A DNA stretch of 21,136 nucleotides, from assembly GCA_016188575.1 (NCBI GenBank), contig JACPHN010000264.1:1-21136 (forward strand). Direction: 5' to 3'. Under the pieces are notes generated by a model. That model worked only from the letters and a program-made list of their open reading frames with translations. It had not been told where the DNA came from and ran no database searches. This document shows, in pieces, positions 330 to 19,898 of this stretch. Both the position numbers and the translations under genes were made by a program. The DNA is from Candidatus Schekmanbacteria bacterium. GTDB taxonomy: Bacteria > CSSED10-310 > JACPHN01. How positions within the stretch are numbered: the first letter of the stretch is position 1; the number at the start of each line of letters is the position of its first letter.

Positions 330-350
330 GTGAGCTTTCGGCAAGCGTGC
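329..350 (+). repeat. IS66 left terminal inverted repeat
   Basis: A 22-bp terminal repeat starting GGTGAGCTTTCGGCAAG. It is identical to the complement of the right end except at position 346. It lies 68 bp before the tnpA start codon. Confidence 0.75.
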
Positions 351-417: not shown

Positions 418-1140
418 ATGGACAAGAAGCGTGACTCGGTTTTGCCGTTGGAGGTCGTCAGTCTGCGCGGAGAAATCGAGGCGTGGCGCCGGAGCCGGGT
501 CCCCGGCCGGTCCATGCCGGAGGCGTTGTGGCGCGAGGCGGGAAAGCTTGCTGGGGCCCACGGCGTCACCCAGATCAGCCTTTGGCTGGACCTGAAGTCC
601 TCCGCCGTCCGAGCGCATCTGCCCGCGGCGCGCCAAGAGGGGGGAACCGAGCATCTCCAGCAAGGAGGGTATGCGGTCGTCGAGCCGCAGAGCGCAGCCG
701 TTGTTGCCGCGGACGTTGCCGCATTGGCGTCACGAATCGAGGATTGGCGGCGCACCAGGGCGAAGCAGGAACCGAGCGCAGCGAGGTCTAGGGCGGCGCC
801 CGCCGCCGTAGGCGGTGGGAGGGTTCCCGAACCGATGCCGCGGGAGCTATGGGAGCGGGCGGTGCGCCTGGCGCGCGATCACGGAGCGATGCCGATCGCT
901 CGCGCATTGCGCGTGGACGATAAGAGGCTCAGATCGCTCCTCAGGGCGGGGGCTGAGTCGCCGGCGCCGACGCCGACGTCCCCGCCGTTTGTCGAGGTGT
1001 GTTTCGCCGCGCCAGATGCCTTCATCTGTGTCGTCGAGATGGCTCGGCAGGACGGTGCGGCAATGACCATTCGTCTATCTCGCGATTGCGCGGCGGCGCT
1101 CGGCGCTCTGAGCGAGGTCTTCTGGGGGGCGGGGCGATGA
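418..1140 (+). CDS. tnpA: IS66 accessory protein TnpA (OrfA), with duplicated HTH-like unit
   Basis: A 240-aa protein, first gene of the IS66 element. IS66 elements of the three-gene type need this small accessory protein together with TnpB and the TnpC transposase; its exact role is not settled, but it is thought to bind DNA. The start ATG at 418 follows GGAGG (407-411) with a 6-base spacer, which decides it over the upstream in-frame codons. The segment E-A-W-R-R-S...M-P-E-A-L-W near residues 20-60 recurs at about residues 105-185 (E-D-W-R-R-T...M-P-R-E-L-W), so the HTH-like unit is present twice, separated by an Ala-rich linker. The C-terminal ~50 residues resemble the usual IS66 OrfA tail. 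IS66 OrfA is usually half this length or slightly more. It overlaps tnpB by ATGA. Confidence 0.7.
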   Translation: MDKKRDSVLPLEVVSLRGEIEAWRRSRVPGRSMPEALWREAGKLAGAHGVTQISLWLDLKSSAVRAHLPAARQEGGTEHLQQGGYAVVEPQSAAVVAADVAALASRIEDWRRTRAKQEPSAARSRAAPAAVGGGRVPEPMPRELWERAVRLARDHGAMPIARALRVDDKRLRSLLRAGAESPAPTPTSPPFVEVCFAAPDAFICVVEMARQDGAAMTIRLSRDCAAALGALSEVFWGAGR

Positions 1141-1499: not shown

Positions 1500-1829
1500 G
1501 ACCGAACGAGGAGCTGTGGTGGCGATAGCGGCGCCGGTCGGCCAGGAGCCGGGAAGCGCCCGCCGCCCGGCGAGAGGCCTGAGTCCACCGCCGGTGCGAC
1601 GTCGACGCGACGGTGCCCCCCACCTCACCTCCGCCCGCGCGCGCGGGGAGGTGAGTTGATCACAGCGGTGGCATACCCCGCCGCTGCGCCTCCGCCCGCG
1701 CGCGCGGGGAGGTGAGGTGGATGGTCTTCGTGAGGCGCTTTCCGCGCACCTCGCAGGCGGACAGGTGGGGGATTCAGGCCGGGGGGTAGACGCGTACGTT
1801 CTACGTCTGCACGTGCTATACCTCTCGGC
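1500..1829. other. Non-coding gap inside the IS66 element
   Basis: 330 bases between tnpB and druA with no supportable gene. In most three-gene IS66 elements tnpB is followed directly by tnpC, so this gap plus druA is extra DNA. It contains two identical 28-bp GC-rich palindromic repeats (1628-1655 and 1689-1716). No clear promoter or terminator (no T-tract follows the palindromes) is visible. Confidence 0.6.
1628..1716 (+). repeat. Two perfect 28-bp palindromic repeats, 33-bp spacer (CRISPR-like geometry)
   Basis: Positions 1628-1655 and 1689-1716 are identical over 28 bases and are separated by 33 unrelated bases, a period of 61. Each has the 14-bp palindrome CCCGCGCGCGCGGG at its centre, flanked by CCTCC and GGAGG arms, and ends GTGAG. 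In the first copy the outer arms extend to 9 bp (1624-1632 with 1647-1655). Repeat length, spacer length, GC-rich stem and GTGAG end are like type I-E CRISPR repeats of GC-rich bacteria. However, there are only two copies and no cas genes in the window, so a binding site for a transposon protein or a structured RNA is equally possible. Confidence 0.55.
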
Positions 1830-2708
1830 ATGGAAACGATTTTCGAATATCGCGGCCGCCGGATTACAGATGCTGATGTCGCGTTGATCCGCGGGCTGGT
1901 CGCCGCCAATCCGGAAATGACGCGGCGCGCCCTTTCCCGCGACCTTTGCCGAAGGTGGGGATGGATCCAGGAAAACGGCGCGCTCAGGGACGGCGTGTGC
2001 CGCGGCCTGCTGCTTTCGCTCTGGCGTGCCGGGCACCTCGAGCTCCCCGCCCCGCGCTGGTCGGCAACCCGCCCGCCCTTGCGCCAGCGACGACTTGCCC
2101 CTCTCGATATCGACACCGGTCCGCTTTTGGGCCGCCTGCAGGACCTCGGCGAGATCCGCTTTCGCCAGGTCCGCCGCGCTGCCGAGGAGCCGCTCCTACA
2201 CGCGTTGATCGCCGATTATCACTACCTGGGCTACACGCGGCCGGTGGGCGAGCATCTCAAGTTTTTGGCAGCCGCTGGCGCGCGGCCGGTGGCGTGTTTC
2301 GTATGGAGCTCGGCGCCACGACACCTTTCGCCGCGCGACCGCTACCTCGGCTGGTCCGCCGAGACGCGGCGGCAAAACCTCCACTTGGTCGCATACAACA
2401 GCCGCTTCCTCATCCTTCCCTGGGTCCAGGTGCCGCATCTGGCCTCGCACCTGCTCGCTCGCATGACGCGAATGCTGCCGGCGGCGTGGCAAGCAGCCTA
2501 CGGCCATCCGGTATGGTATGCCGAGACGTTTGTCGACCCGACGCGTTTCCGGGGCACCTGCTACCGCGCGGCGAGCTGGGTGTGGCTGGGGCGTACCACC
2601 GGCCGGGGCAAGGACGACCAGACGGGCCGGCCCAACCGCTCGCTCAAGGACGTCCTGGGCCTGCCACTGCACCGGCGCTTTCGCGCCCTACTGACGAGGA
2701 GATCATGA
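1830..2708 (+). CDS. druA: DruA/DUF4338-family protein inside the IS66 element
   Basis: A full-length 292-aa member of the DUF4338 family, the family of Druantia anti-phage protein DruA, whose molecular function is unknown. The N-terminal ~75 residues match the usual lead domain (R-R-A-L-S-R-D-L-C-R-R-W-G-W near 33-45). The core follows: H-Y-L-G-Y (131-135), R-D-R-Y-L-G-W (169-175), N-S-R-F-L-I-L-P-W-V (190-199), E-T-F-V-D (232-236) and a G-T-C-Y-R-A-A-S-W...G-R-T-T-G-R-G tail. It sits between tnpB and tnpC, and its stop overlaps the tnpC start (ATGA, 2705-2708), so it is built into the transposon rather than merely nearby. Upstream of the ATG there is no good Shine-Dalgarno sequence. It may serve transposition, protect the element, or act as a carried defence gene. 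The other Druantia genes are absent. Confidence 0.85.
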   Translation: METIFEYRGRRITDADVALIRGLVAANPEMTRRALSRDLCRRWGWIQENGALRDGVCRGLLLSLWRAGHLELPAPRWSATRPPLRQRRLAPLDIDTGPLLGRLQDLGEIRFRQVRRAAEEPLLHALIADYHYLGYTRPVGEHLKFLAAAGARPVACFVWSSAPRHLSPRDRYLGWSAETRRQNLHLVAYNSRFLILPWVQVPHLASHLLARMTRMLPAAWQAAYGHPVWYAETFVDPTRFRGTCYRAASWVWLGRTTGRGKDDQTGRPNRSLKDVLGLPLHRRFRALLTRRS

Positions 2709-4289
2709 GCCCAAAGAAGATCAGCCGAAAGGCGTCGGGCGGAAAAAGGTCACCCCACCGGCGGGAAATCAGCCTCGATGAGCTGCATGCGATGTTGGAG
2801 CGGGTTCAGCCGATCATCAGCGCTGAGGACCACGAGCTCCTTGCGGACACCGTGGAGACGCTGGCGGTGCTGACCCAGAAGCTGGAGCAGAAGGGGATCA
2901 CCATCGCCAAGCTGCGCAACCTGCTTTTTGGCCCCGGTTCCGAGAAGACTCAGGACGTCCTGGAGCGCATCGCGGAGGAGCCCACGGCTGACGAGCAGGC
3001 AGCGCAACCGGCGGCCACCGGCGACCAGACGACCGCGATGGAGGCCGATCCGAAAACCTCCGCGCCGAAACCGAAGCGCAAGGGACACGGCCGCATTGCC
3101 GCGGACGCCTATGCAGGTGCGGAGCAGGTGGAGGTGGCTCATCCCTCCCTCGCCCCTGGCGACCCCTGTCCGCTAGACGATGGCGGGAAGGTATACCCAC
3201 TACCAGAGCCGGCGAAGCTGGTCAGGGTTACGGGAGTGGCACCGCTGTTGGCAACCGTCTACGAGCTGGAGCGGCTGCGCTGCAACCTGTGCGGCACCGT
3301 ATTTACCGCGCCGGCGCCGGAGGGGGTTGGCGAGGAGAAATACGATGCGCGCGCGCGGGCGATGATGGGGTTTCTGAAGTATGGCTCCGGATTGCCGTTC
3401 AACCGCTTGGAGCGGCTGGGGGAACGGCTGCAGATGCCGCTGCCCGCGGCCACCCAGTGGGAGGAAGTCGAGAAGCTCGCCGCGATCCTCGAACCCGTGT
3501 GGATCGAGCTGATCAACCAGGCGGCGGACGGCGAGGTGGTGTACATCGATGATACCAGGGCGCGGGTGCTGGCGCTCAATGAGCAGATTCGCCAGGAGCT
3601 GGCCGCGGGGCGCACGAAGCGAACCGGTGTGTTCACCTCGGGTGTGGTCTCGACAGTTGGTGACCGGCGGCTTGCCGTCTTCTTTACCGGCCGGCAACAT
3701 GCGGGCGAGAACCTCGACAAGGTCCTCTCCCAGCGTAACGAGGAGCTGCCGCCGCCGATCCAGATGAACGACGCGGGTTCGTGCAACAGCTCCCCCGCTG
3801 GCATCGAGACCATCGTTGCCAACTGCATGGCGCACGCGCGGCGCCACTTCGTCGACGTCGCCACGAGCTTCCGCGACGAGGTGCGTCACGTGCTCGAGGT
3901 GCTGCGCGAGGTCTACCGGTACGATGACGAAGCGAAAGCGGCCCGCATGTCGCCCGCGCAGCGTCTGACCTACCACCGAGAGAACAGCAAGCCGCTGATG
4001 GAAGGCCTGAAAAAGGGGGCGCCTTTGGACAACAACTTGGTGGAGCGGGCCTTGAAGAAGGCAATCTTGCACCGGCGGAATTCGCTGTTCTATCAGACGA
4101 CCAACGGTGCGCACGTGGGCGACGTGCTGATCAGTGTCATCCATACCGCCGCGCTGGATCAACCCCTTCGACTACCTGGTAGCGGCACAGCGCCACGCCG
4201 GCGCTGTCGCCGCGTGCCCCGAACGCTGGATGCCCTGGCGTTATCCCGAGACGCTGGCCGAGATGGCCGCTGCTGCTCCGACCGCGTGA
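2705..4289 (+). pseudogene. tnpC: IS66 transposase TnpC, internal loss and C-terminal frameshift
   Basis: The DDE transposase of the element. The start ATG overlaps the druA stop and follows GAGGAG. Visible parts are an N-terminal leucine-rich coiled segment (~40-75), a basic stretch (P-K-P-K-R-K-G-H-G-R, 121-130), a zinc-ribbon area with C155 and C193/C196, and DDE residues in Y-I-D-D-T (280-284), Q-M-N-D-A (353-357) and N-N-L-V-E-R-A (443-449). Two faults are visible. About 40 residues that IS66 transposases normally have between L-M-E-G-L-K (431-436) and G-A-P-L-D-N-N (438-444) are missing. Near base 4160 the frame shifts, so the conserved N-P-F-D-Y-L tail is found in another frame (4161-4289) while the original frame runs on meaninglessly to 4429. 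The first zinc-ribbon Cys pair is also incomplete (C-P-L-D-D). Confidence 0.82.
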
Positions 4290-4530
4290 GCTCTTTCGCG
4301 TTGACGGCTCCCGCCAGCGACACGCCATGGGGCGGAGCCCCAGCGCGGGACGCGAACCCTGAATCGCCCGCCGGCCCCAAGTCACTGCGCGGCGGATGCC
4401 TTGCCCGTCAACCCCGGCCCCCGGCGTGACGGCCATTGCGCCATCTCGCAGATGAGGCGGGCGATCCGGGCGAAAATAGCGGTCTTGTATCGTCGTGGTC
4501 GCTCTGGTCTACCACGCCGCTGTTCCGTGC

Positions 4531-4552
4531 GCACCCTTGCCGAAAGCTCACC
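4531..4552 (-). repeat. IS66 right terminal inverted repeat
   Basis: The complement of the left end, 21 of 22 positions matching, with the outer 17 bp (4536-4552) perfect. It ends the element 263 bp after the intended tnpC stop. The remnant transposase frame starts immediately outside it. Confidence 0.75.
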
Positions 4553-4969
4553 GTCAAAGAGAAGCGGCACGGCCGGCTCGTGACACTCAGCACGCGCATC
4601 CTTGCCGGTGCCCAGCATGTTGCCGCGCGCGGGCTGGTGATCAGTACGGCGCTGATCGAGCGCCTGAACCTGACCCTGCGCAGAGCGCTCGCACCCCTGG
4701 CGAGAAAGACCTACAGCTTCTGCAAGGATCGAGAACAGATGCAGCGGCGGGTGACCTTCTTCCAAGCCTTCTACAACGTGGCGCGCCCGCACCAGAGCCT
4801 GCGCACGCACTTGCCCATGGAAGAGCGCCACCGCACGGGAGCGATTAGCACGCGATGGCGGCAACGAACGCCTGCAATGGCGGCCGGACTGACGGACCAC
4901 GTCTGGACCTTTCGTGAGCTTCTCACGGCGAAATTCGCGCCCTTGTACTGTCAAAGTACTAGCGGATGA
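4553..4969 (+). pseudogene. C-terminal remnant of a DDE transposase (IS1-like type)
   Basis: About 138 codons of a transposase whose 5' part is missing; the frame is cut exactly at the right end of the IS66 element. The segment S-T-A-L-I-E-R-L-N-L-T-L-R-R (just after the middle region) contains the catalytic-type glutamate in an I-E-R-x-N context. It is followed by R-K-T-Y-S-F-C-K-D and the conserved tail R-T-P-A-M-A-A-G-L-T-D-H-V-W-T. I recognise this as a transposase widespread in environmental bacteria and often labelled IS1-like, but I cannot name the IS. The IS66 insertion, or a deletion next to it, probably removed the front. The missing half is not in the DNA left of 329. Confidence 0.6.
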
Positions 4970-5133: not shown

Positions 5134-5616
5134 ATGGCCCGACATAATGCGTACCGTCGGGGGGGATTGTTTTGCTCAGACGCGGGAGGTGTGTTTACGT
5201 GGGAGGTCGATGGTCGAAAACGGCACGCGCTAGTCGATGTCCTGGGGCTGCTGAGCGTGGTGGTGGTGCACGCCGCCGACATTCAGGATCGCGACGGGGC
5301 GCGGCAGGTCTTCGCCGAGCTCCTGGGGTGGCGACTGCCGCGACTGCAGGCGGTGCTGGCCGATGGTATCTACAATGGCGACATTGGTCCGTGGCCGCGT
5401 CGCACCCTTGGCTTGCAGTTACACGTGGTGGAACGGCCCGTGGGCACGCAGGGGTTCACAGTGGTGCCCAGGCGCTGGGTCGTGGAGCGCACCTTCGCCT
5501 GGATGGGGCGCTGCCGCCGACTCGCCAAGAGTTACGAGCGCTTCCCTGTCGGAAGCGTTGGCTTCACCTATATCTCCATGATCTCCCTCATGCTTCATAG
5601 ATTGTCTCGTGTATGA
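5134..5616 (+). pseudogene. C-terminal remnant of an IS5-family transposase
   Basis: 160 codons, of which roughly the last 140 match the DDE domain of IS5-family (IS4/IS5 superfamily) transposases: V-D-G-R-K-R-H-A-L-V-D near the front, V-V-V-H-A-A-D-I-Q-D-R-D-G-A, L-A-D-G-I-Y (second catalytic Asp), and the closing V-V-P-R-R-W-V-V-E-R-T-F-A-W (catalytic Glu). The N-terminal half, including the first catalytic Asp region, is missing, so it cannot be active. The first codons before about 5180 look unrelated. The 164 bases between this and the previous remnant show no gene. Confidence 0.72.
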
Positions 5617-5967: not shown

Positions 5968-7038
5968 GTGGGCCCCTTCCTGCGTGCCGGTTGCGCACGA
6001 AACCGAGGGCCGAACGACAGGAGCCGTACGCTGACGAAGCACACCTTCACGAGCCTGATGCAGCGCTTATCCCGCGCCGGGTTCAAGAAGGACTTCGTGT
6101 GCCCGGCGATCTTGGCAGACTGGTGGAACGACCAGTGCGCCGAGGACCCTAATCTCCTCCAGGACGTCGAGTTTCGGGTGGCGCGCTTCCTCGGCCTGCC
6201 GCTCGCGACCGTCAGGGACACCACCGCCAGCCTGACCCCGCCCAACTACCCGCAAGCCCAACTCCGACGGGTGCGGGATGTGGACCGCGACCGTCTTGGA
6301 CCGGCGATCCACTCGGCCATGCGGATCGGCGCAGCCGTCGTTCGCAGCCTGCGTGACGCCCCGCCCGACGCAGTAGTGCCTCCCGCCGATGGCCTGGCCT
6401 GGCGCGCGACGATCCAGCGCGCCGGTTCAGCGGTAACGCTGCAGGACATCGTGGCCGACCTTTGGGGACGCGGCATTCCGGTGATCCCCCTCGATGTGCT
6501 CCCGGCCCCCAGCTTTCAGGGCGTCGCGTGCATCGTTGAGGGCCGCCCCGTCATACTGCTCGGCCACAAGCATGACGAGCCTGGACGCGTCGCGTTTCCG
6601 GCCGCGCACGAGGCGGGACACGTCGCAGCGGGCGACTGTGCGCCGGGGCAGCCTGTTGTGGACGAGGAGGAGGAGATCGCGGACGACGCGGACATCGAGA
6701 TCCGAGCTGACCAGTACGCCACCCGCGTTGTCGTCGGCGGCGACTCCGTGCCCCGCGTTGACGGCGGCAGCTTCAAGGAGCTCGCGCGCATGGCCGCCGA
6801 GATCGAGCGCACAACGGGTGCTGACGCGAGTGCTGTGATCTTCGCGTGGGCTCGTCGCACCGGCGACTACGCGAAGGCGACGATGGCCGTGAAGGCCCTC
6901 TATCGGGGGTCAGGCGCGCGCAGACAGCTCCGACAGATCTTCGACCGCTACGTCGACCTCGATGCGGCGGCCGAGAGCGACCGCGCTCTGCTCCGCTGCG
7001 TCTACGGCGACCCGGAGCGCGATGAAGCTGCTCGTTGA
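5968..7038 (+). CDS. ImmA/IrrE-family zinc metallopeptidase
   Basis: A protein of up to 356 aa with an M78-type (ImmA/IrrE) zinc peptidase domain in its C-terminal half. Family members typically cut a partner repressor in response to a signal. Metal-binding residues are H214-E-A-G-H218; a following E-I-R-A-D-Q-Y-A segment (244-251) supplies the usual third ligand Glu. The first ~90 residues (F-T-S-L-M-Q-R-L-S-R-A-G-F...R-V-A-R-F-L-G-L) form a separate helical domain. The start is uncertain. GTG 5968 opens the frame but has no ribosome site; a CTG at 6031, reading L-T-K-H-T-F, sits 7 bases after AGGAG and fits better; ATG 6058 is the third option. It overlaps the PIN-like gene by 17 bases. No XRE repressor, its usual partner, is beside it, so the protease may act on the downstream PIN-like or beta-family protein. 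Confidence 0.85.
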   Translation: MGPFLRAGCARNRGPNDRSRTLTKHTFTSLMQRLSRAGFKKDFVCPAILADWWNDQCAEDPNLLQDVEFRVARFLGLPLATVRDTTASLTPPNYPQAQLRRVRDVDRDRLGPAIHSAMRIGAAVVRSLRDAPPDAVVPPADGLAWRATIQRAGSAVTLQDIVADLWGRGIPVIPLDVLPAPSFQGVACIVEGRPVILLGHKHDEPGRVAFPAAHEAGHVAAGDCAPGQPVVDEEEEIADDADIEIRADQYATRVVVGGDSVPRVDGGSFKELARMAAEIERTTGADASAVIFAWARRTGDYAKATMAVKALYRGSGARRQLRQIFDRYVDLDAAAESDRALLRCVYGDPERDEAAR

Positions 7039-7633
7039 CGTCGACGCTTTCTGCAAGCTGCAGGTGGCCGGGCTGCTCAGCGACGCAGCCGGTTTGGTGG
7101 CTGCGCGTATCGACGATTGCGGCAGGCTGCCGGCGCTCCCTCACATGTTGCGGAGAGGCAAGCTCCGGAAGCAGTTCGGGGGGGATGTTTGCGAGGTCTT
7201 GATCTCAGTCGCGGAGGCCGTGCCCGTGATACCCCAGCCCAGCGACACCTGGCTCGACAAGCTGATCCCAATCGAGGGGATCGATGTCGGCGAGGCCCAG
7301 CTCTTCGCCGCGGCGGCCGAAGGCAGCCTGCTCGTCGTGTCGGGCGACAAGCGTGCTCTGCGTGCCCTGAAGGACGTCGAGGGATTTGCCGGGGCGCTCG
7401 CCGGCCGCATTGTGGTGCTGGAGGCGGTTCTTGTCGCCCTTTGCGACCATCTCGGGGCGGATGCAGTTCGGGACCGCATCGCTCCACTCGCTGCAGCGGA
7501 CAAGATGGTCCAGGTCTGCTTCTCGATCGGGAACCCGAGTCCCCGCGAGGCGCTCATCTCGTACTACCAGAGCCTCGCGGCCGAGCTCGATCCGCTTGTC
7601 CTCTGGGACGCTCGGGCCGGAGGGGCGCCATGA
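7022..7633 (+). CDS. PIN-like nuclease, probable toxin-type partner of the ImmA-like protease
   Basis: A 203-aa protein that looks like a PIN-domain RNase: an acidic residue pair at the very start (L-L-V-D6-V-D8), an acidic residue in the middle (D-V-G-E91-A-Q-L-F) and a third cluster after a strand (L-V-V-S-G-D109-K-R-A-L). This is the arrangement of the metal-binding residues of PIN enzymes. The ~70-residue C-terminal extension (to 203) is not recognised. The start ATG lies inside the end of the immA-like gene (17-base overlap), and its stop overlaps the next start as ATGA, so the three genes are translated as one unit. The fold assignment rests on residue pattern only. Family name not recognised. 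Confidence 0.6.
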   Translation: MKLLVDVDAFCKLQVAGLLSDAAGLVAARIDDCGRLPALPHMLRRGKLRKQFGGDVCEVLISVAEAVPVIPQPSDTWLDKLIPIEGIDVGEAQLFAAAAEGSLLVVSGDKRALRALKDVEGFAGALAGRIVVLEAVLVALCDHLGADAVRDRIAPLAAADKMVQVCFSIGNPSPREALISYYQSLAAELDPLVLWDARAGGAP

Positions 7634-8696
7634 CCTTTGGAGTCCACCATTACGTCCCGGTGCTGAAGGTCAAGCGCGGCGAGAAGAAGGCGCTCCGCTC
7701 CGTCCTGCCAGCCCTTCGGGGGCACATTACGCCGCTACTGGAGATCGTCCAACGAAAGGCCGACAAGGCTGCGACGGTCGATGCCCACCTCAACAACGCA
7801 TTCGATGCCCTCGCGGATAGTGTCCGTCCTTACTCCAGGTGCTTCCTTGATGCGCGTGAGATCGCACCCGATGGCCCGTCGGCCGCAGCCGAGGTCTTTC
7901 GGAGAGCATCCTCGGCCGGGATCGTGTTCACGCCGGTCACGGGGATTTCTCGGGCCGCGGACGTGGCTGCAGCCATCGGCAATCAAACTCACGGGATCGC
8001 GCTGAGGCTGTCACGAGAGGAGCTCGAGAGCGGACACCTGGCCGGGAGGCTTCGAGCCTTCTTGGCGCGACACGCGCTCGCACCGGAAGGAACGGACCTG
8101 ATCATGGACCTGGGGCCGGTCGACGAGATGATCGTCGACGGCGTCGCGGCGTTGGCCGCCGCGTTCTTGGGTGATGTCCCCGATCACCAACGGTGGCGCA
8201 CGTTCACAATGTCGGCATGTGCGTTCCCATGAGCATGGGCGTCGTCGCCCGCCACTCCCACAACCGTGTCGAACGCGCGGGGTGGATCGCGTGGCGGGAC
8301 CAGCTACACGCGCGCCGGAGCCGTCTTCCGCGGCTTCCCACCTTCAGCGACTGCGCCATTCAGCATCCGAAGGGCGTCGAGGACTTCGATTTCCGAACCA
8401 TGCAGGTCTCGGCTTCGATCCGGTACACGATGTCGACTGAATGGCTGCTCATCAAGGGGGCGAGCACTCGCGTCACGCGGCCGGGCGTGCAGTTCCCGGC
8501 ATTGGCAACGAAGCTCGTGTATGGGCAGATGCGCTCCAGCTTCTCCGGAGCCGCGCACTGCGAAGGGTGCAGATCGATGAAGGCCGCCGCGGATCTTGCC
8601 GGCGGCTTCGGCTCCGCCGAGGCATGGCGGCGGCTCGGGACGATACATCACATCTCCATGGTCACGGAGGGCCTTGCGGCGCTGCCCTGGCCTTGA
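7630..8696 (+). pseudogene. Beta-family protein gene with a one-base frameshift
   Basis: Together the two frames encode about 355 residues of a beta-family (Beta_protein, sce7725-like) protein: Y-V-P-V-L-K-V-K-R-G-E-K-K-A-L near residue 8, then I-T-P-L-L-E-I near 33, both typical of the N-terminus. Frame one stops at TGA 8230-8232 after the conserved W-R-T-F-T-M...F-P. The rest, ending at 8696, continues in another frame from about 8229. One missing C in the run at 8226-8228 would explain it. By chance or not, the second frame begins with an ATG overlapping the stop (ATGA, 8229-8232), so a split protein could still be made by restart. The molecular role is unknown; relatives occur beside sce7726 proteins, and here an sce7726 gene converges with it. 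Confidence 0.68.
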
Positions 8697-9406: not shown

Positions 9407-12184
9407 TCATACAGCCCCCCCTACCTCAACCCAGCCGACGAGCTCCGCGTGGAAGCCACCGCTGTCGGGCACGGCGCCCGCATGTTTCAACTCGCGCTGC
9501 AGCATCGGCTCTATGCTCTCGCGGATCAGCGCCGCGCGCTCGCTGCTTTCGAGTGTGGGTGGCCCCGCGTCGCGATCAAAGAGCTTGTCGGCGCGCCGTT
9601 CGAGCGGAGGGAGTCGAGCCCCGCTCGAATCGACGGCCAGGCGAACGACGCGCGCCGTTCGCTCGTGCCCGCCGCCCTGCGTCTCGACCAGCCACCAAGT
9701 CACGACGCCGCGGGCTTCGCCGTTGCCGCGGACGGCTGCGCCGAGCTCGTCGGGTTTGATGCCCCCGTGTCGCTGCAAAGCAGACTGCACCAGCGGATGG
9801 TCAAGACCGAGAAGATCGACATCCTCACGCACGCGCGCGGCCTCACGGTCCGTCGTGAACCAGGCGACGCGCTGGTCGCTCGCGTCCCGTGCCTCCAATG
9901 TGCCGTCGTCGAGGCGAAAGAGGCGATGGTGGCGGCTTTCCAGGTCGGCACGGAGAAAGCGCGTCAAGCGCTCGAGCCCTGCGCTGACGTCCGAATACGG
10001 CCGGTAGTCCTCCAGATTGAAGCCATCCAGGTCCTGGAAGAGCTGCCAGACCACGCTCCGGGCTTCCTTGGCGTGCTCCAGGGCGGCCTCCAACTCGATC
10101 TTGGTGCGCTTCAGCTCCGGGTCAGAAAGCGCCTGCTGGTAGAGCTGGTCGTAGCGGATCCGTTCGGAGAGCTGCCCGAGGATCTGCCCCCGCAAGTCCT
10201 CGGCGATGTTGCCGTGGTCGTCGAGCTTGCCGAGGGCCTTGGCGATCTCCTTCAGCTTCTCGTCGAGCAGCAGGAAGATGCGCCCCTCGATGGTGTCCGA
10301 CAGCACGAGGTTGTAGATCTGCGCCGTGTCCTTTTGCCCGTAGCGGTGGATGCGGCCGATGCGTTGCTCGACGTCCATCGGATTCCAAGGCAGGTCGAAG
10401 TTGAAGACCACCCGGGAGAACTGGAGGTTGATGCCCTCGCGCCCGGCCGCGGTGCAGACCAGGATCCGCGGACCGTTTTTCTGGCGGAAACGGCGTTCGG
10501 CCGCCAGCTTGGCTCCGTGGTCCCCACCGCGAAGGACGACGACGCCCTGCCCAGGATAGGCCGTCTCGATCTCCCGACCGATCACATCCACCGTGCCGAG
10601 AAAGGTCGCGAAGATGACGATCTTCTCGCCGGGGTTCTCCCTCCACAGGGCGCCCAGACCGCGGAGAAGCTTCTCCACCTTGGTCTCGCGGCGCGCCGGG
10701 AACCCCTTCAACAGGTTCGCGATGCGAAGCCGCTCCTCCGGCAGTGCCAGGCCGACGACCGCTGCTGCCATCTCCTCGCCCCCAGCGGCCGCCTCTTCTC
10801 CGGCGCCGGCATCGGACGCCAGCGCCAGGTCGTCCTCGCGGAGCTTGCGCAGCAGCCGTAGCTTGAGGTCCGCGAGTGCTCGGTCGGCCTCTCCGCGCCC
10901 CACTGCGTCATCCGGCAGCTTGGTTTCGGCGTGGATCAATGCCCGGGCCTCGTCGTAGAGCGCCTCGCGCCCCTCGATGTCGAGCGCCTGGTCCTTGAGG
11001 ATCGCCTCGTGGATGGTGAGCATCAGCATCCGGCGACGCAGCGTTCGCCGAACGGCCGCGAAGCTCGACGCGGCGATCTTCTGGAAGATGGTCATGACGA
11101 AGCCGAGAGCTCGACCCTGGTTGCCCTGTCGCTTCGCCAGCGCGAAGCCGTCTTCCAGGTATGCCCTGAGCTGCGCGTAAAAAGCGCGCTCGTCCTCGTT
11201 CATCGTGAAGCTCTCGGTGTGGACCCACCGGCGGGCAAAGAGCGGAGAGCCGTCGGGCCGGCAGGCCTCCGCCTTGGTGCGCCGGAACACCAGCGTGTTG
11301 AGCCGGTGTCGGTTCTCCACCATGTCCTCCGGCCCCTTGAACCGGGTCGGGTCCAGGAGCTGCATCAGCATCCAGAAGCGGTAATGATCGCCCTGGTGCG
11401 GCGTCGCCGAGAGCAGAAGCAGGTCGCGTGCGTGACCCCGCAGGGCCTCCGCGAGCTTGTAGTTTTCGGTCTTCGTGATCTTGTTGCCGTTTCGGTACGC
11501 GCTGAGATGGTGCGCCTCGTCGAAGACGACCAGGTCCCAGATGGGCGCCTCGAGGAGCTTCTTGACCCGGCGCGGACGCTTGAGCGTGTCGATGCTGGCG
11601 ATGAGCCGGTGGTGCTTGGCGAAGGCGTTGGTCTTGCGGTCGGTGACGTCGCCCTCGCTGCCGAAGACCTCGAAGTCCAGGTGGAAGACCTCGTTGAGCT
11701 CCCGGTGCCAGTTGTTGACCAGTCCCGCCGGGACGACCATCAGCGCCCGCCGCAGCTCACCGCGGCCAGCCAGCTCCCGCAGGACCAGGGCAGTCTCGAT
11801 GGTCTTGCCGAGGCCGACCTCGTCAGCCACGAGGTAGCGCCGCGGAGAGGCCGTCGCGATCCGGTGCGTAAGCACCACCTGGTGCGGCAGCAGGTCGATG
11901 CGCGCCGAGGTGAGCGCCGCGGCGCTTTCCATCAGCGGCAGCGTGCGTGCCTCGATGGCGAGCCAGGCTTTACGCAGCCGCTCGGCTGAGCCCTGCACGC
12001 CCGCCAGCACACGCTCTGTCCGGGTGAGCGCGGGGCGTAGGGTGCCCACCGGGACCTGGCGCTCACCGACCCCAAAGAACGCGCGGACGAAGCCGTTGCG
12101 CTCACTTGTGACGACCACGCCCTCGCCGAATTCGGGATGGTGGATCCGCTGGCCCGGGGTGAGGTCGAACACGTCGGTCATCAT
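9407..12184 (-). CDS. SNF2-type DEAH helicase/ATPase (BrxHII/DrmD-like)
   Basis: A 925-aa superfamily 2 helicase of the SNF2 type found in BREX type 3 (BrxHII) and DISARM (DrmD). Motif I is D-E-V-G-L-G-K-T (121-128), motif II is D-E-A-H (222-225), motif III is S-A-T (259-261) and motif VI is Q-R-I-G-R-I-H-R-Y-G-Q (607-617). A short N-terminal domain (H-H-P-E-F-G-E-G-V-V, ~15-24) looks like the SH3-like opening of these helicases. Between the two RecA lobes is an insert with an Ala/Glu/Gly-rich run (~457-475). The C-terminal ~280 residues are not recognised. The start ATG overlaps the stop of the preceding gene (ATGA, 12184-12181). It probably moves along or remodels DNA for the BREX-like complex. 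Confidence 0.88.
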   Translation of the reverse strand: MMTDVFDLTPGQRIHHPEFGEGVVVTSERNGFVRAFFGVGERQVPVGTLRPALTRTERVLAGVQGSAERLRKAWLAIEARTLPLMESAAALTSARIDLLPHQVVLTHRIATASPRRYLVADEVGLGKTIETALVLRELAGRGELRRALMVVPAGLVNNWHRELNEVFHLDFEVFGSEGDVTDRKTNAFAKHHRLIASIDTLKRPRRVKKLLEAPIWDLVVFDEAHHLSAYRNGNKITKTENYKLAEALRGHARDLLLLSATPHQGDHYRFWMLMQLLDPTRFKGPEDMVENRHRLNTLVFRRTKAEACRPDGSPLFARRWVHTESFTMNEDERAFYAQLRAYLEDGFALAKRQGNQGRALGFVMTIFQKIAASSFAAVRRTLRRRMLMLTIHEAILKDQALDIEGREALYDEARALIHAETKLPDDAVGRGEADRALADLKLRLLRKLREDDLALASDAGAGEEAAAGGEEMAAAVVGLALPEERLRIANLLKGFPARRETKVEKLLRGLGALWRENPGEKIVIFATFLGTVDVIGREIETAYPGQGVVVLRGGDHGAKLAAERRFRQKNGPRILVCTAAGREGINLQFSRVVFNFDLPWNPMDVEQRIGRIHRYGQKDTAQIYNLVLSDTIEGRIFLLLDEKLKEIAKALGKLDDHGNIAEDLRGQILGQLSERIRYDQLYQQALSDPELKRTKIELEAALEHAKEARSVVWQLFQDLDGFNLEDYRPYSDVSAGLERLTRFLRADLESRHHRLFRLDDGTLEARDASDQRVAWFTTDREAARVREDVDLLGLDHPLVQSALQRHGGIKPDELGAAVRGNGEARGVVTWWLVETQGGGHERTARVVRLAVDSSGARLPPLERRADKLFDRDAGPPTLESSERAALIRESIEPMLQRELKHAGAVPDSGGFHAELVGWVEVGGAV

Positions 12185-12690
12185 GAGATCCGCGGGTGAT
12201 ACATGCCGACCCAGGCATCGCCGTCCGGGTCCGCGGTGAGGTCACCAGTCAGAATGCGCTGGGCATCGCCCTCGGCCCCGGCCCAAAGGAGACGCCCGAG
12301 AGGGAAATGCGCATCAGCGCGCCCAACCCAGTAGTAGTCGCCGCTAGCAAGCTCGTAACGCACGCGGCCGCGGCCGGAGGGCAACCAGAAGACGAGTGCC
12401 GCATCTCCCTGATACTCGTCCTGGAAAGCGAAGATCTGCGGGTCGAGATCCTGCTCGATCCAGGTCGCCGCGTCATCCGGCGAAAGGGCATCGAGGCAGC
12501 CTTCGAGCCCTGCCACCACCAATGCGCGGCCGTTGTTCGAGGGCAGGTCCTCGGGCCACGACCGGGCGAGCACGAAGAAGGTGCGGATCGACGCGACCTC
12601 GGAGGGCTCGGCGAAGGTGACCAGGGTGGACGGGCACCACAGCAGCGAGCAGCCCCGGCGGGTCCACGCCGTGTCGCGCATCAGCTTCAT
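12181..12690 (-). CDS. Unknown 169-aa protein between methylase and helicase
   Basis: A 169-aa acidic protein I do not recognise. It has no Walker motif, so it is not an obvious BrxF-type ATPase, and it does not look like BrxA. Visible features are a hydrophobic front half, the segment D-P-Q-I-F-A-F-Q-D-E-Y-Q-G-D-A-A (83-98), an aromatic run D-Y-Y-W-V-G-R (118-124) and the end W-V-G-M-Y-H-P-R-I-S. The start at ATG 12690 is fixed by an ATGA overlap with the methyltransferase stop, and its own stop overlaps the helicase start the same way. Such tight coupling on both sides argues that it is a real subunit of the system. The frame stays open upstream to 12828 only as a shadow inside the methylase gene. 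Confidence 0.75.
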   Translation of the reverse strand: MKLMRDTAWTRRGCSLLWCPSTLVTFAEPSEVASIRTFFVLARSWPEDLPSNNGRALVVAGLEGCLDALSPDDAATWIEQDLDPQIFAFQDEYQGDAALVFWLPSGRGRVRYELASGDYYWVGRADAHFPLGRLLWAGAEGDAQRILTGDLTADPDGDAWVGMYHPRIS

Positions 12691-15600
12691 GCGTCGGCCC
12701 CCAGGTCTGCGAAGAGCGAGAGCTGGTGGGCCTGCTGGCGGTTCCTCGTCTGCCAGCTCGCATACAGCCGCTGGGCTCTCGCCGCCGCCGTCCGCACCTG
12801 AGCATCGTTCGACCGGGTGGCGAACCACTCGACCAGCGAGCCCAGCGCGGGGTGGAGCTTGAAGTTTGGGTTGCTCAGCGTGTCGTCGGCCTTGATGCCG
12901 CTGCCGTCGTAGCAGGCGCCGATGAGGAACGCGGCCTGGTCGTAGTCGTGGACCATGCCGACGCGATGCTTCTTGTGCCAGGCCTGGGCCACCTCGGCGA
13001 ATGACTTGAGGTAGTAGACCTTCTTCTCCTCGCGGATCCAGCCGCGCTCCTCAAACTCGGATGGCGCGATACCGGTGCCTCGGAGGAACTTCTGCACCTG
13101 GTCCCGGGGCTGCTCGGCGCCGGACTGGAACATGCGCAGGAGCTGACGCGTGTACGGCGAAGCGGTGACCGGTGGCGGCTCGACGCCAGGGTTGGCGTCT
13201 TCGTCGAGCACCTGCAGCACGCCGAGCACGGCGTCCTTGACCGAGAGGGTCGTCCCCTCGGCCTCGTAGACCTTGCCGTAGTGGCGGGAATAGTACTCCA
13301 GTGCCTTACCGCGCTTGATGACCTGGATGTCGGCCGCGGGCAGGCCCTCGCGCTGGTGGTGCTCCAAGAGGCCCTGGAGACGCCGGACCTCCTTGAGGAT
13401 CTCGCGCCGCATCTTCGCCCAGCTCACGGGCCGCGGTTCGAAGCGGCGCTTGCGGCAGACGTGGATGATGTCGTACTCGACCTTGCGCGAACCAAACTCG
13501 CCGTCGCCCTTCGTCTCGTCGCTGCGGATCGGGTAGGTCGCCTGTAGGTAGAACCCGGCGTCGAAGAGGCTCTCCAGCACCTGCACCCAGGGTTCGTCCT
13601 CGCTGTGGTGGAAGGTGAACGCAAGAAGCCCGCCCGGCTTCAGGATGCGGTGGCACTCCGACCAAGCCGCCGTGAGCAGGCGTTGGTAGAAGCTCCCGGG
13701 GTCCTCCGGATTGCGAGCCTTGTTCTCGACGATCTCCAGCGTCTTCGGCACGTACTCTGAGGTAAACCATTCCGGGTAGCGTTCCTTCAAGACCAGCCGG
13801 AGCCAGACGTAGAAGAAGTCGGACAGCTCGGAGTAGTGGAGCAGGCCTCCGAACGGGGGGTCCGTGACGACGAGGTCGATGCTTCCATCACGAGCGGTCT
13901 CAATTCCCGTGGCCGTCCCGCACGTCACGTCAGCAGAAAGAACCGGGTCGCGCGGCTCAGCTTTCTCGCTCTTTCCCGACGTCAAGTCAGCAAGAAGAGC
14001 GCTCTGCTGTGCGAGAGAAGTGTTTGAGACGAGTTCCCAGGGATCCTGCGCCCAGTCGATGGCACTCAGAAGCCCGGCCGTTGATGATTGCCAGTTCCCA
14101 CGGCCGAAGTTCGAGAACACGCCGTTCTCAATTACAGTCGACTTGGGGTGGAAATTGTTGTTCGAGAACATGGGCTCCGGCGTATCGCGCTGCGGGTTCC
14201 AGAAGCAGAACATGTTCTGGTTGCGTAAGTACTGCTGGTAGGCGCTCAAGACGCACTCTCGTGTGCCCCAAGCATGCCGGGCTCCGCCCGCCTCGACGGC
14301 CGCTCGAAGCAGCTGCGACTGCACGAGAAGCTGGCGCGGGTTGAACATCTTCCACCAGTGGGTGAACCCGTGGTTCGGAATGCCGCCATTGAGGTGGTGC
14401 GTCATGAATCCGTACGGCAGCTCGCTTCGAGGCCAGAAAGCAGCAAGGTCACCTTCCCGTCGCGCTTCCCACTCGGTCGCGGCAGCGTCGAAGGCCGAGC
14501 TATAACGCACTGGCGCGAAGAAGCGACCGCCGTAGGCCTGGCCCTCTTTGTCGCAGGTCGGGCAGTAGCCCTGCACTGCGTACGCCGCCACCGGCCCCGT
14601 CTTGCCAGACGCCTTCACCGTGGTCAGAACGTCCTGCTGCCGCCCGCAGGTAGCCGCGGCACACTCGTAGGTTGACCGCTTTGGAACCGTCCCACCCTCG
14701 CTGCCGGTCTTGATCGTCGCCCCGGTCACAGGGTCCGCGATCTCATCGGGCAGCCTGCCGCGAACCTCCACGAGCTGCATCTTCGCCGCCCGTGCCCGGT
14801 TCCAGGCGGCCGTCGCCGCAGCCGTGTCGGTGACGCTCCCCCCGTACGGTGACCCGTCTGGACCTACGCTCGCCTCGCCCGCCAGCCATTGTGGGTGGAC
14901 GAGGAGCGACAGCTCCACCTTCTTCTTCTGGGGCGGCTTCTCTGGCACGCCGAGCTCGACGTGCTCATGACCGCAATGCGGACACGCGACATCCATCCGG
15001 CGCTTCTTGTTCGGGTGCATCGCGTGCTCGCGAGTCGGCAAGGCGAAGGCGCGCTCCGTCTCCGCGACCACGAGCGGCACACCCGGCGCCATCCGCGCAT
15101 CCTGGTCTTCGATGTCGAACTGCCGACCGCATGCCTTGTTCTTGCAGTGTTGTGGCCAGTAGCGAACGGTCATCGTCTTCACGGCCATGACCGGAGAGCT
15201 CATGATCGGCGTCCGATGCCCACACCCGGTGACCTGGCAGGGTCCGTGCTTGGCCCAGAAGACGTAGATGATCTCGGGCCCCTCGTACCGGTAGTCCTTC
15301 CTCTGCTCCGGGGTCAGAGCGAGCGGGTCGAAGCCCGCGCCCATGACCTTGCCCGAGGACACCTGCGTCCACTTGCCCTTGTGCCCGCGGGCGCAGTCGC
15401 ATGCGTAGAAGGGCATGATCTGCGGCTTGACCTCGGCCTCGATGTCGGCGAGCAACGCCTCGACCTCGGCCTTGTCCACCTGTGCCAGCTCGGTCTTCAC
15501 CACGAACCACGCGACGGGATTCAGGTCGATGCCGAGCATCTGCATGCCGAGGCGGCTGCCTTCGACGATCGTGGTTCCGCCGCCCATGAACGGATCAACC

Positions 15601-15959
15601 ACCTTGATCTTCGAGAGCGCGCCGCGCTTCTGGTGGTTCGCGTAGTAGACGTCCCAGACGGCCTTGCCCGCCTCGAGCGGATCCTTCGGCGCCCGCATCG
15701 ACGCCGACAGCAGGAGCGACCGAAAGACGCTGGAGCGGCGCCGGGCCCACCACTTCGACACCTGGTAGATGGGCTTGCCGGCGTTGCCCTCGATGGTCGC
15801 GACCTGGTTGACCGGGATGATCGGGAAGTCGACTTCGAGGCAGGTGAGCGGTCGATCGGGGTCGGAAAAGTCCACCGTGTCCACGGCCACGGGGCGGCCG
15901 GCGCCGACGGCCTTGCGGATCTCCTCTGCGAGCACGTCGGCCTTGTTCTTTTCGGCCAT
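12687..15959 (-). CDS. DUF1156-type adenine-specific DNA methyltransferase (PglXI-like)
   Basis: A 1090-aa predicted N6-adenine methyltransferase of the DUF1156/COG1743 family, the type that replaces PglX in BREX type 3. The DUF1156 region is N-terminal (S-K-W-W-A-R-R at 68-74). Motif I is D-P-F-M-G-G-G-T-T (122-130) and the catalytic motif is D-P-P-F (700-703). Between them lies a long insert with six Cys pairs (187/189, 241/246, 272/277, 326/329, 433/438, 466/469), likely zinc ribbons, perhaps for DNA recognition. The C-terminal ~350 residues are helical and unassigned. The start is ATG 15959, 2 bases after the pglZ stop; the frame's upstream opening to 16472 is a shadow in pglZ. It presumably marks host DNA so that the system spares it. 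Confidence 0.88.
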   Translation of the reverse strand: MAEKNKADVLAEEIRKAVGAGRPVAVDTVDFSDPDRPLTCLEVDFPIIPVNQVATIEGNAGKPIYQVSKWWARRRSSVFRSLLLSASMRAPKDPLEAGKAVWDVYYANHQKRGALSKIKVVDPFMGGGTTIVEGSRLGMQMLGIDLNPVAWFVVKTELAQVDKAEVEALLADIEAEVKPQIMPFYACDCARGHKGKWTQVSSGKVMGAGFDPLALTPEQRKDYRYEGPEIIYVFWAKHGPCQVTGCGHRTPIMSSPVMAVKTMTVRYWPQHCKNKACGRQFDIEDQDARMAPGVPLVVAETERAFALPTREHAMHPNKKRRMDVACPHCGHEHVELGVPEKPPQKKKVELSLLVHPQWLAGEASVGPDGSPYGGSVTDTAAATAAWNRARAAKMQLVEVRGRLPDEIADPVTGATIKTGSEGGTVPKRSTYECAAATCGRQQDVLTTVKASGKTGPVAAYAVQGYCPTCDKEGQAYGGRFFAPVRYSSAFDAAATEWEARREGDLAAFWPRSELPYGFMTHHLNGGIPNHGFTHWWKMFNPRQLLVQSQLLRAAVEAGGARHAWGTRECVLSAYQQYLRNQNMFCFWNPQRDTPEPMFSNNNFHPKSTVIENGVFSNFGRGNWQSSTAGLLSAIDWAQDPWELVSNTSLAQQSALLADLTSGKSEKAEPRDPVLSADVTCGTATGIETARDGSIDLVVTDPPFGGLLHYSELSDFFYVWLRLVLKERYPEWFTSEYVPKTLEIVENKARNPEDPGSFYQRLLTAAWSECHRILKPGGLLAFTFHHSEDEPWVQVLESLFDAGFYLQATYPIRSDETKGDGEFGSRKVEYDIIHVCRKRRFEPRPVSWAKMRREILKEVRRLQGLLEHHQREGLPAADIQVIKRGKALEYYSRHYGKVYEAEGTTLSVKDAVLGVLQVLDEDANPGVEPPPVTASPYTRQLLRMFQSGAEQPRDQVQKFLRGTGIAPSEFEERGWIREEKKVYYLKSFAEVAQAWHKKHRVGMVHDYDQAAFLIGACYDGSGIKADDTLSNPNFKLHPALGSLVEWFATRSNDAQVRTAAARAQRLYASWQTRNRQQAHQLSLFADLGADA

Positions 15960-15961
15960 CG

Positions 15962-16963
15962 TCAGCCCTCCGCCCGCGATACGTCGATGAAGGGCACCAG
16001 CACCTCGAGCACACTGAGCCCCCCGTGGGAAAGAGTCGGGTGGCCGCCGGAGACCTTCCATTTCCGCCGGCCAAGCACGTACCGATGCAGACCGTGGTCG
16101 GTGTCCAGGACCAGATCGACTGGCGGCACCCACGGGCTGTCGGCCCCGTCGTTCGGCGCCGACCGGCCAGCCTTGAAGCAGTCCTTCATGTGCTGGACCT
16201 GGTCCGGATCCGTCATGTCGGGGAAGAGACCGGACGCCGCGTAGCCGTGATCGCCCGTGATGACGAGGCGCCGCCCCTGAGTGAGTCGCTCGATCAGCAT
16301 CCAGAAGCCGTCGGACGCCATCGCCTGCTGCACCTCGGCGACCAGCTCGGCCAGACCCTTGCCGTGCTCGGCCAGCTCGTGGATTCGCGTGTCGGGCCAC
16401 TCGTGCCACAGGACCCAACGAGGCTCGGAGGTGATCTGGGCGGCGGCGTCTTCCCACGCGACCTTGAGACACTCGGTGCGGGCGCCGGGCAGCCGGTGGC
16501 TGTTCCCGGCGCCATTGTTGTAGAGCATCGATCGCGAGCCGAAGCCCAGAGCCTTGGCGAACGGCGTGGTATCGGGCGGTAGCTCCGCTCCGGTGACCCC
16601 ATCCTCGTGGACGGCGTAGCCCCTGCTGTGCAGCCCGCCGAGGAGCCAGGGAACCTCTCGCAGCGAAAGGCCGTCGAGAATCAGGACCGCGCGCCCACCG
16701 TCACGTGCCTCCCACCATTCCGCCAGCGTGTTCGCCGTCGTCTTGACGACGCCAGTCCATTGCCGCCACAGGTCCCATCCGGCGGTGGCGAGGAAGAGGT
16801 CCACGTCGGCGATGGCCTTTTCTCGCTTCACGATGTCGGACACGGCCTTGTCCGTGCTCACCGGGTCGCGGAACGTCGCCCAGACGTGCTCGGCGATCGC
16901 CTCCCAGGCCGCGGCTGGGCTTCCGTCCTGGATCTGGCGCAAGAGGCCGAGTGGAAGCGCCAT
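15962..16963 (-). CDS. pglZ: PglZ-domain protein (alkaline-phosphatase superfamily), short form
   Basis: A 333-aa protein with the PglZ core, the hallmark of BREX and Pgl phage-defence systems. Metal-site residues of the alkaline phosphatase superfamily are visible: L-I-L-D97-G-L-S, I-T-G-D238-H239-G-Y and G-G-H308-P-T-L-S-H313-G-G. The protein is about half the length of most BREX PglZ proteins, which have long N-terminal parts; here the domain begins almost at once. Both ends are fixed by neighbours: its ATG shares one base with the stop of the ATPase gene (TGATG) and its stop is 2 bases from the methylase start, so nothing has been cut off recently. It probably acts with the DUF499 ATPase. 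Confidence 0.87.
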   Translation of the reverse strand: MALPLGLLRQIQDGSPAAAWEAIAEHVWATFRDPVSTDKAVSDIVKREKAIADVDLFLATAGWDLWRQWTGVVKTTANTLAEWWEARDGGRAVLILDGLSLREVPWLLGGLHSRGYAVHEDGVTGAELPPDTTPFAKALGFGSRSMLYNNGAGNSHRLPGARTECLKVAWEDAAAQITSEPRWVLWHEWPDTRIHELAEHGKGLAELVAEVQQAMASDGFWMLIERLTQGRRLVITGDHGYAASGLFPDMTDPDQVQHMKDCFKAGRSAPNDGADSPWVPPVDLVLDTDHGLHRYVLGRRKWKVSGGHPTLSHGGLSVLEVLVPFIDVSRAEG

Positions 16964-19722: not shown

Positions 19723-19898
19723 GCTCTTCCCCCAGCGAGGCTGGGGCAGCGGGTGCGGTCGCCGCGCGCAGCGAGCGGACCACAGAGTCGGACGCATACG
19801 TCCGTGGGTCCTCGAGAGGAGATGTCGGTCACGCGCCGCCGGCAGTCACCCGCACGAGCGGCGCCATCGTGGCCCTGGAACCCGTCCTGTACGCTCAT
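19719..19898 (-). CDS. Possible 59-aa leader ORF coupled to the DUF499 gene
   Basis: A 59-codon frame starting at ATG 19898, with AGGGAG about 9 bases upstream. Its stop overlaps the DUF499 start as ATGA, the same coupling used twice more in this operon. The predicted peptide (Arg, Gly and Cys rich, four cysteines) resembles no family I know, and a chance frame in GC-rich DNA is a real alternative. Its last codons run through a hairpin that hides the DUF499 ribosome site, so translating it would open that site. It could therefore matter as a translated leader whatever the peptide does. Confidence 0.3.
   Translation of the reverse strand: MSVQDGFQGHDGAARAGDCRRRVTDISSRGPTDVCVRLCGPLAARGDRTRCPSLAGGRA
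19730..19746 (-). promoter_or_regulatory. Hairpin covering the DUF499 ribosome binding site
   Basis: Perfect 7-bp stem CCCCAGC / GCTGGGG with a 3-base loop, ending 7 bases before ATG 19722 on the minus strand. The 3' arm contains the GGGG that forms the Shine-Dalgarno sequence. In RNA this would reduce initiation unless melted by an upstream ribosome. Confidence 0.4.

What the first reader, a model, noticed from the sequence alone, without database searches (positions are those of the whole stretch)
1830..4289. DruA-family gene built into an IS66 transposon and coupled to its transposase
A full-length DUF4338/DruA protein lies between tnpB and tnpC and within the terminal repeats, and its stop overlaps the tnpC start (ATGA). 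That coupling shows it is a working part of the element rather than a neighbour. DruA is known as a Druantia phage-defence protein of unknown mechanism; an IS66 home hints at an ancestral role in transposition (target choice, DNA processing) or at a transposon carrying defence genes.
Basis: partly seen in the sequence, partly recalled or inferred. Interest (0 to 1): 0.7.

Follow-up and report, generated by a model that had tools for sequence, protein, structure and literature searches.

The report
Mom-like DruA gene inside IS66 transposons
A gene known only from a phage-defence system turns out to be a regular part of several kinds of bacterial jumping gene, and it is related to a phage enzyme that chemically modifies DNA, which suggests these transposons modify DNA as they move.

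Summary
The anatomy is as reported: tnpA-like, tnpB, druA and tnpC lie between 20-nt terminal repeats (330-349 / 4532-4551), and the druA stop overlaps the tnpC start (ATGA, 2705-2708). This copy is decayed: tnpC has a 38-codon gap and a frameshift, and there is no target duplication.

The arrangement is not a one-off. Ten further loci in Myxococcota, Acidobacteriota, the window's own phylum and a viral contig have tnpB-druA, nine of them continuing into tnpC. Nearly all keep a 4-nt overlap at the druA stop. Two intact copies sit in perfect 8-bp target duplications. DruA is also operonic with other IS66 types, one inside a prophage, and fused to Tn5/IS50-, ISAs1- and IS701-type transposases.

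DruA is a winged-helix plus GNAT-fold protein. Three methods link its GNAT domain to Mom, phage Mu's DNA-modifying enzyme: PHROGs (E to 1e-6), profile-profile comparison (96%, shuffled controls at most 1%) and structure (Mom is the top VIA-align match, Z 12.9). Mom's essential serine aligns with an invariant DruA serine.

Best reading: DruA is an accessory subunit of transposition that modifies DNA at the transposase complex. Membership in the transposon is shown; the chemistry is inferred.

The parts
330..349 (+). left terminal inverted repeat GTGAGCTTTCGGCAAGCGTG (consensus in relatives GTGTCCTTTCGGCAAGCGTG)
   Evidence: 19/20 match to the right end; similar repeats end L093, L094, L102, L095, L100
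4532..4551 (-). right terminal inverted repeat
   Evidence: no 8-bp target duplication outside it
418..1140 (+). tnpA-like gene, 240 aa, apparently with an internal duplication (by eye)
   Evidence: no Pfam or NCBIfam hit; identified by position, ATGA overlap with tnpB and 33% identity to the gene before tnpB in L054
1137..1499 (+). tnpB, IS66 accessory protein
   Evidence: PF05717 E 7.1e-27; NF033819 E 1.5e-25
1500..1829 (.). 330-nt tnpB-druA spacer with a 32-nt inverted repeat (1620-1651 / 1689-1720); 36-64 nt in relatives, so probably an insert in this copy
1794..1822 (+). druA promoter-like site: GTACGT, 17 nt, TATACC (extended -10), ending 7 nt before the ATG; relatives mostly have TTGCGT in place of GTACGT
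   Evidence: similar site at the same place before druA in nearly all IS66-A relatives and L053; consensus match only
1830..2708 (+). druA, 292 aa: N-terminal winged-helix-like domain and C-terminal GNAT/Mom-like domain
   Evidence: PF14236 E 2.9e-27; GNAT-part model pLDDT 82, pTM 0.79; winged helix inferred from the better-modelled N-terminal part and sequence pattern
2112..2705 (+). GNAT/Mom-like domain of DruA (residues 95-292); invariant H131, R192, S206 and nearly invariant Y245
   Evidence: profile match to Mom 96%; Mom 8bv8 top VIA-align match Z 12.9; residue mapping
2705..2708 (+). ATGA: druA stop overlapping the tnpC start
   Evidence: ATGA overlap with the next gene in L043, L054, L058, L093, L094, L095; TTGA in L101 and L102
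2705..4289 (+). tnpC, IS66 DDE transposase, degenerate: 38-codon gap after 4015 and frameshift near 4157-4160
   Evidence: PF03050 E 4.6e-30; comparison with L102 and L117

Best explanation
The locus is a decayed member of an IS66 subtype (tnpA-tnpB-druA-tnpC) in which druA is a standard, translationally coupled gene of the transposon. It belongs to a large transposon-borne branch of the DruA family that has associated repeatedly with DDE transposases, as an operon gene (IS66, probably ISKra4 and IS701) or as an N-terminal fusion (Tn5/IS50, ISAs1, IS701). DruA carries a DNA-binding-like winged helix and a GNAT-fold domain related to Mu Mom. Proposed mechanism: DruA is made together with the transposase and brought to the transposon ends or target, where it covalently modifies bases in a Mom-like reaction. 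That would protect or mark the DNA being moved against host nucleases and restriction, or license the ends and target. Shown here: transposon membership, gene overlap, fold and Mom homology with conserved active-site residues. Inferred: translational coupling, DNA as substrate, action at the synaptic complex, and the benefit.
For: Ten other loci with tnpB-druA in this order, nine continuing into tnpC, mostly with 4-nt overlaps. Terminal repeats and exact 8-bp target duplications around whole druA units: L093 GGCCGGTG, L102 TATTTTTC; L119 TTAAATCA, L103 AATAAATG, L105 GATTGAAC. Fusions confirmed by Pfam: Tn5/IS50 (L044), ISAs1 (L097, L111), IS701-type DDE_5 (L112); operonic IS66-B, IS701-like and ISKra4-like. 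Low dN/dS, about 0.13-0.25 (dS near saturation), and druA mean identity 61% against tnpC 51% and tnpB 65%. The PHROGs family holding Mu Mom (E 7.8e-84) matches DruA at 1.3e-6 to 1.6e-4 in several members. hhalign 96%, P 2.6e-9; shuffled and reversed controls at most 1%. Structure: Mom 8bv8 ranks first in VIA-align, Z 12.9 over 168 residues. Mom S124 (the inactivating mutation in 8bv8) aligns with DruA S206 (30/30); D149 with D236 (D/E 27/30), Y159 with Y245 (29/30), H58-Y59 with H131-Y132. Fusion to a transposase argues for local action.
Against: No biochemistry. P0001 alone has no PHROGs hit, and the Pfam Mom model is only reached below its cut-off. In plain Foldseek, ordinary GNAT acetyltransferases lead the list, and Mom's lead over them in VIA-align is about 1 Z unit. 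GNATs often acylate proteins or small molecules. IS66 elements without druA exist (for example in L052), so it is not required for transposition in general. A few DruA genes had no transposase found next to them (for example L098, L115, L158).
Confidence: 0.5

Rival explanations
1. DruA is a protein acyltransferase: it acylates the transposase or a host factor (nucleoid protein, sliding clamp, replisome) to regulate or target transposition.
For: GNAT fold; Foldseek's best matches are spermidine and other N-acetyltransferases; coupling and fusion would put the transposase within reach.
Against: The usual GNAT acetyl-CoA loop (Q/R-x-x-G-x-G/A, general knowledge) is not evident in DruA, as in Mom; the conserved serine, aspartate and tyrosine follow Mom; profile comparison and VIA-align favour Mom.
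Confidence: 0.2
2. DruA is a non-catalytic DNA-binding or architectural subunit, for target choice or end recognition, with the GNAT fold kept only as a scaffold.
For: N-terminal winged-helix-like domain; IS66 accessory proteins TnpA and TnpB are themselves small and of unclear role (general knowledge).
Against: The most invariant residues lie in the GNAT part and match Mom's active site; several ISAs1/IS701 fusions keep the GNAT part and lack the winged helix (L052, L111, L112).
Confidence: 0.12
3. DruA is a cargo defence gene carried by the transposon for the host's benefit, as in Druantia.
For: PF14236 is named after Druantia; transposon and defence-type DruA are homologous (96.8%); the window also holds a defence island.
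Against: No PADLOC DruA model hit; no Druantia partner named in the window's defence-model hits; repeated fusion to transposases and repeated position within the transposase operon.
Confidence: 0.08
4. DruA entered this one IS66 copy as a chance later insertion and has no role.
For: This copy is damaged and has an odd 330-nt spacer.
Against: Ten relatives with the same order, target duplications around whole units, purifying selection.
Confidence: 0.02

Closest known systems
IS66-family insertion sequences (tnpA-tnpB-tnpC)
   Same: TnpB and TnpC families, gene order, overlapping genes, terminal repeats starting GT, 8-bp target duplication in intact relatives
   Different: extra druA gene between tnpB and tnpC with its own promoter-like site; terminal repeats GTGTCCTTTCGGCAAGCG
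Druantia DruA (PF14236)
   Same: same Pfam family; homologous by profile comparison with defence-type loci
   Different: no Druantia partner genes found; ETFVD-GTCY-AANW motifs instead of the TTTS-GRSSxYNR of the defence-type loci; fused or coupled to transposases; no PADLOC model hit
Mom, DNA modification enzyme of phage Mu (PF25680, PDB 8bv8)
   Same: GNAT fold, aligned over the whole domain, conserved H-Y, R, S, D and Y residues; also carried by a transposing element
   Different: only about 15% identity; DruA has an added winged helix; substrate and product unknown
DUF4338 GNAT domains fused to DndF (PMC10853773)
   Same: that paper already assigned DUF4338 to the GNAT fold
   Different: there it is a proposed defence co-effector; Mom and transposons are not mentioned in the passages read

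Membership tests
IS66 family | DDE_Tnp_IS66 transposase TnpC | tested here: met
   PF03050 E 4.6e-30, though degenerate in this copy
IS66 family | TnpB accessory protein | tested here: met
   PF05717 E 7.1e-27; NF033819 above cut-off
IS66 family | TnpA accessory protein | tested here: inconclusive
   gene in the right place overlapping tnpB, but no library hit
IS66 family | terminal inverted repeats | tested here: met
   19/20
IS66 family | 8-bp target site duplication | tested here: not met
   absent in the window copy; present and exact in relatives L093 and L102; taken as decay of this copy, so the family assignment rests on the relatives and the other features
DruA (PF14236) | match above the curated cut-off | tested here: met
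   96 bits against cut-off 27
Druantia defence system | DruA recognised by defence-specific models | tested here: not met
   no PADLOC hit at E 0.01
Druantia defence system | partner genes such as the DruE helicase | tested here: not met
   five neighbouring proteins scanned: Hma-like and PD-Lambda-2-like hits, no Dru protein among the families shown (25 of 42 shown for the helicase)
Mom-type DNA modification enzymes | GNAT fold with Mom as nearest solved structure | tested here: met
   8bv8 Z 12.9, rank 1; next row 11.9, then 11.4 and below; plain Foldseek ranks other GNATs first
Mom-type DNA modification enzymes | family model above curated cut-off | tested here: not met
   PF25680 best 24.3 bits against 27.1 among the DruA proteins scanned: homologue, not a member
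Mom-type DNA modification enzymes | active-site residues | tested here: met
   S124/S206, D149/D236, Y159/Y245, H58-Y59/H131-Y132; D236 is D or E in 27/30
Mom-type DNA modification enzymes | modifies adenine in DNA | not testable with these tools
   needs nucleoside mass spectrometry

The most novel reading that the evidence does not exclude
A widespread class of bacterial transposons, spanning at least four DDE transposase families, carries its own Mom-type DNA-modifying enzyme, coupled or fused to the transposase, so that moving DNA or its target is chemically marked during transposition. Druantia's DruA would be a defence-recruited branch of the same enzyme family.
Probability: 0.4. Interest if true: 0.9.

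Novelty: new variant of a known kind. Interest (0 to 1): 0.76.

Why it matters
DruA has been an orphan of the Druantia phage-defence system. Finding it as a standard, repeatedly acquired component of unrelated transposases, with a Mom-like active site, gives a direct hypothesis for its chemistry and names the residues to mutate (S206, Y245, H131). If transposons carry their own base-modifying enzyme, that would be a new layer of transposition control or protection, comparable to Dam methylation control of IS10 and IS50 (general knowledge) but encoded by the element. It also cautions against calling every PF14236 gene a defence gene.

Tried and rejected
The first AlphaFold job, on full-length DruA with 5 sequences, was poor (pLDDT 52.8); it was not used beyond noting a better N-terminal part. 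A PDB sequence search with the DruA profile gave nothing. The phage collection gave no close DruA and plasmids only Thiodictyon. The mirror-tree test of druA against tnpC was uninformative (6 usable rows, r 0.30, p 0.25; druA-tnpB r 0.65, p 0.013); an earlier version used wrong tnpC pieces and is discarded (correlation part), and one script failed on a syntax error. IS91/integrase next to DruA (L051, L038) and IS1634 (L200) are not counted as partners: adjacency only, and in L205 an IS1634-like gene lies between two druA pieces. A link from defence-type DruA directly to Mom was not detectable (0.8%). Literature: no held paper joins DruA with IS66, or DruA with transposase and acetyltransferase; most subscription papers, ISfinder and TnCentral are not held, so a prior note there cannot be excluded.

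Full report
OBSERVATION. The window is one whole contig (C122) of a 9.2-Mb genome in 275 contigs, from a phylum with only eight genomes held. The reported anatomy is right. druA is an intact 292-aa ORF at 1830-2708 with a PF14236 match of E 2.9e-27. Upstream lie tnpB (1137-1499) and a tnpA-like gene (418-1140) that overlaps it by ATGA. Downstream, tnpC starts inside the druA stop (ATGA, 2705-2708). Terminal repeats sit at 330-349 and 4532-4551. This copy is decayed. Against L102 and L117, tnpC lacks 38 codons after nt 4015 and shifts frame near 4157-4160. No target duplication is present. The tnpB-druA spacer is 330 nt instead of 36-64. tnpB is single-copy in the genome, while 28 DruA matches, mostly fragments, are scattered over its contigs.

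THE ARRANGEMENT RECURS. A scan of GTDB contigs and whole-genome searches in the window's phylum and in those of two related loci gave further loci with tnpB-druA: L043, L054, L058, L093, L094, L095, L100 and L102 with tnpC downstream, and L101 up to a contig end. A viral contig adds L116/L117. druA identity to the window is 36-63% among these, and 68% for L053, which lacks IS66 genes. The druA/tnpC junction overlaps as ATGA in L043, L058, L093, L094 and L095. In L054 a small ORF is chained by the same overlap and then leads into tnpC. L101 and L102 have TTGA. L100 has ATGA at the druA stop, but the tnpC frame starts 5 nt later. A promoter-like site, usually TTGCGT, 17 nt, then a TA-starting -10, lies just before the druA ATG in nearly all of these and in L053; this is a consensus match only. 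Whole units are bounded by terminal repeats and exact 8-bp duplications in L093 (GGCCGGTG) and L102 (TATTTTTC). A related IS66 element in Thiodictyon has tnpA-tnpB-tnpC without druA (L052), so druA is an accessory of particular lineages.

DruA IS A GENERAL TRANSPOSON COMPANION. In a second IS66 type, druA lies before tnpC (L103, L104, L119, L096) or after it (L105, L106, L107, L108). L103, L119 and L105 have perfect 8-bp duplications, and L119 is inserted in a contig with phage genes. Pfam confirms fusions to Tn5/IS50-type (L044), ISAs1-type (L097, L111) and DDE_5/IS701-type (L112) transposases; more members appear. L053 carries druA plus an IS701-like gene between 24-nt repeats with CTAG at both ends, and L194 has druA overlapping an ISKra4-like gene; the IS701 and ISKra4 names for these two rest on my reading of the sequences. 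In a 46-row tree the partner labels cluster (13 changes against 30 in shuffles). Ten of the eleven IS66-A druA genes and L053 form one supported group (100/99). L043, with the same gene order, lies elsewhere, so druA probably entered the tnpB-tnpC slot more than once. Selection: dN/dS is about 0.13-0.25 with dS near saturation; mean identity is 61% for druA, 51% for tnpC and 65% for tnpB.

WHAT DruA IS. DUF4338 was already called a GNAT domain (PMC10853773). Here the link is to Mom of phage Mu. PHROGs family phrog_1384, which holds Mom (E 7.8e-84), matches several DruA proteins at 1.3e-6 to 1.6e-4. Profile-profile comparison of 30 DruA with 9 Mom proteins gives 96% and P 2.6e-9 over 164 columns; ten shuffled and one reversed control give at most 1%. 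A model of the GNAT part (pLDDT 82, pTM 0.79) has Mom 8bv8 as best VIA-align match, Z 12.9, with other GNATs following from 11.9. Plain Foldseek ranks ordinary GNATs first. The alignment pairs Mom S124, the residue of the inactive mutant named in 8bv8, with DruA S206 (invariant in 30), D149 with D236, Y159 with Y245 and H58-Y59 with H131-Y132. The S124 numbering is my inference: in the 241-aa sequence residue 124 is a serine, while in the 231-aa numbering position 124 is not. Defence-type DruA (L191-L193) is related to transposon DruA (96.8%) but not detectably to Mom (0.8%), so the transposon branch provides the link.

MECHANISM. Shown: druA is an overlapping, selected, mobile part of transposons and has a Mom-related domain with matching key residues. 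Inferred: it modifies DNA, and does so locally, because it is made with or fused to the transposase. Benefits could be protection of the intermediate from host nucleases or restriction, or marking of ends or target. Protein acylation and a purely structural role remain possible.

VERDICT. The broader result, a Mom-like DruA companion shared by several transposase families, appears unreported in the library searched, within the limits of that library.

Noticed in passing
window 5968-8232 (+) and 9410-19848 (-): Defence island beside the element: a PD-Lambda-2_C-like gene, and an Hma-like set (HmaA-like helicase E 1.8e-98, HmaB-like methylase E 6e-33, and a large third gene without a PADLOC hit).
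   Followed up: partly
window 4436-4969 and 5134-5616 (+): Remnants of two other transposases (rve_3/IS1-like and DDE_Tnp_1) after the element: an insertion-sequence graveyard.
   Followed up: partly
window 1500-1829: Extra 330-nt spacer with a 32-nt inverted repeat, absent from relatives; possibly a small inserted element.
   Followed up: no
L116 / L117 (IMGVR_UViG_3300048503_000080): druA of the IS66-A type lies near both ends of a 42.7-kb viral contig in opposite orientations: composite transposon, or assembly artefact.
   Followed up: no
L158:4797-5573: Lone, very divergent DruA-like gene in a phage contig near deaminase- and methylase-like genes; recalls the cyanophage DruA-like proteins of PMC12774648.
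   Followed up: partly
L054:1877-2209: Extra 110-aa ORF of no known Pfam family chained between druA and tnpC by ATGA overlaps.
   Followed up: partly
L202, L203, L204: DruA-type regions inside very long ORFs (702-1297 aa) in Pseudomonadota, probably a further defence-type architecture.
   Followed up: no
G000, many contigs: 28 DruA matches, mostly fragments, in the window's own genome: decayed remains of many DruA transposons.
   Followed up: partly
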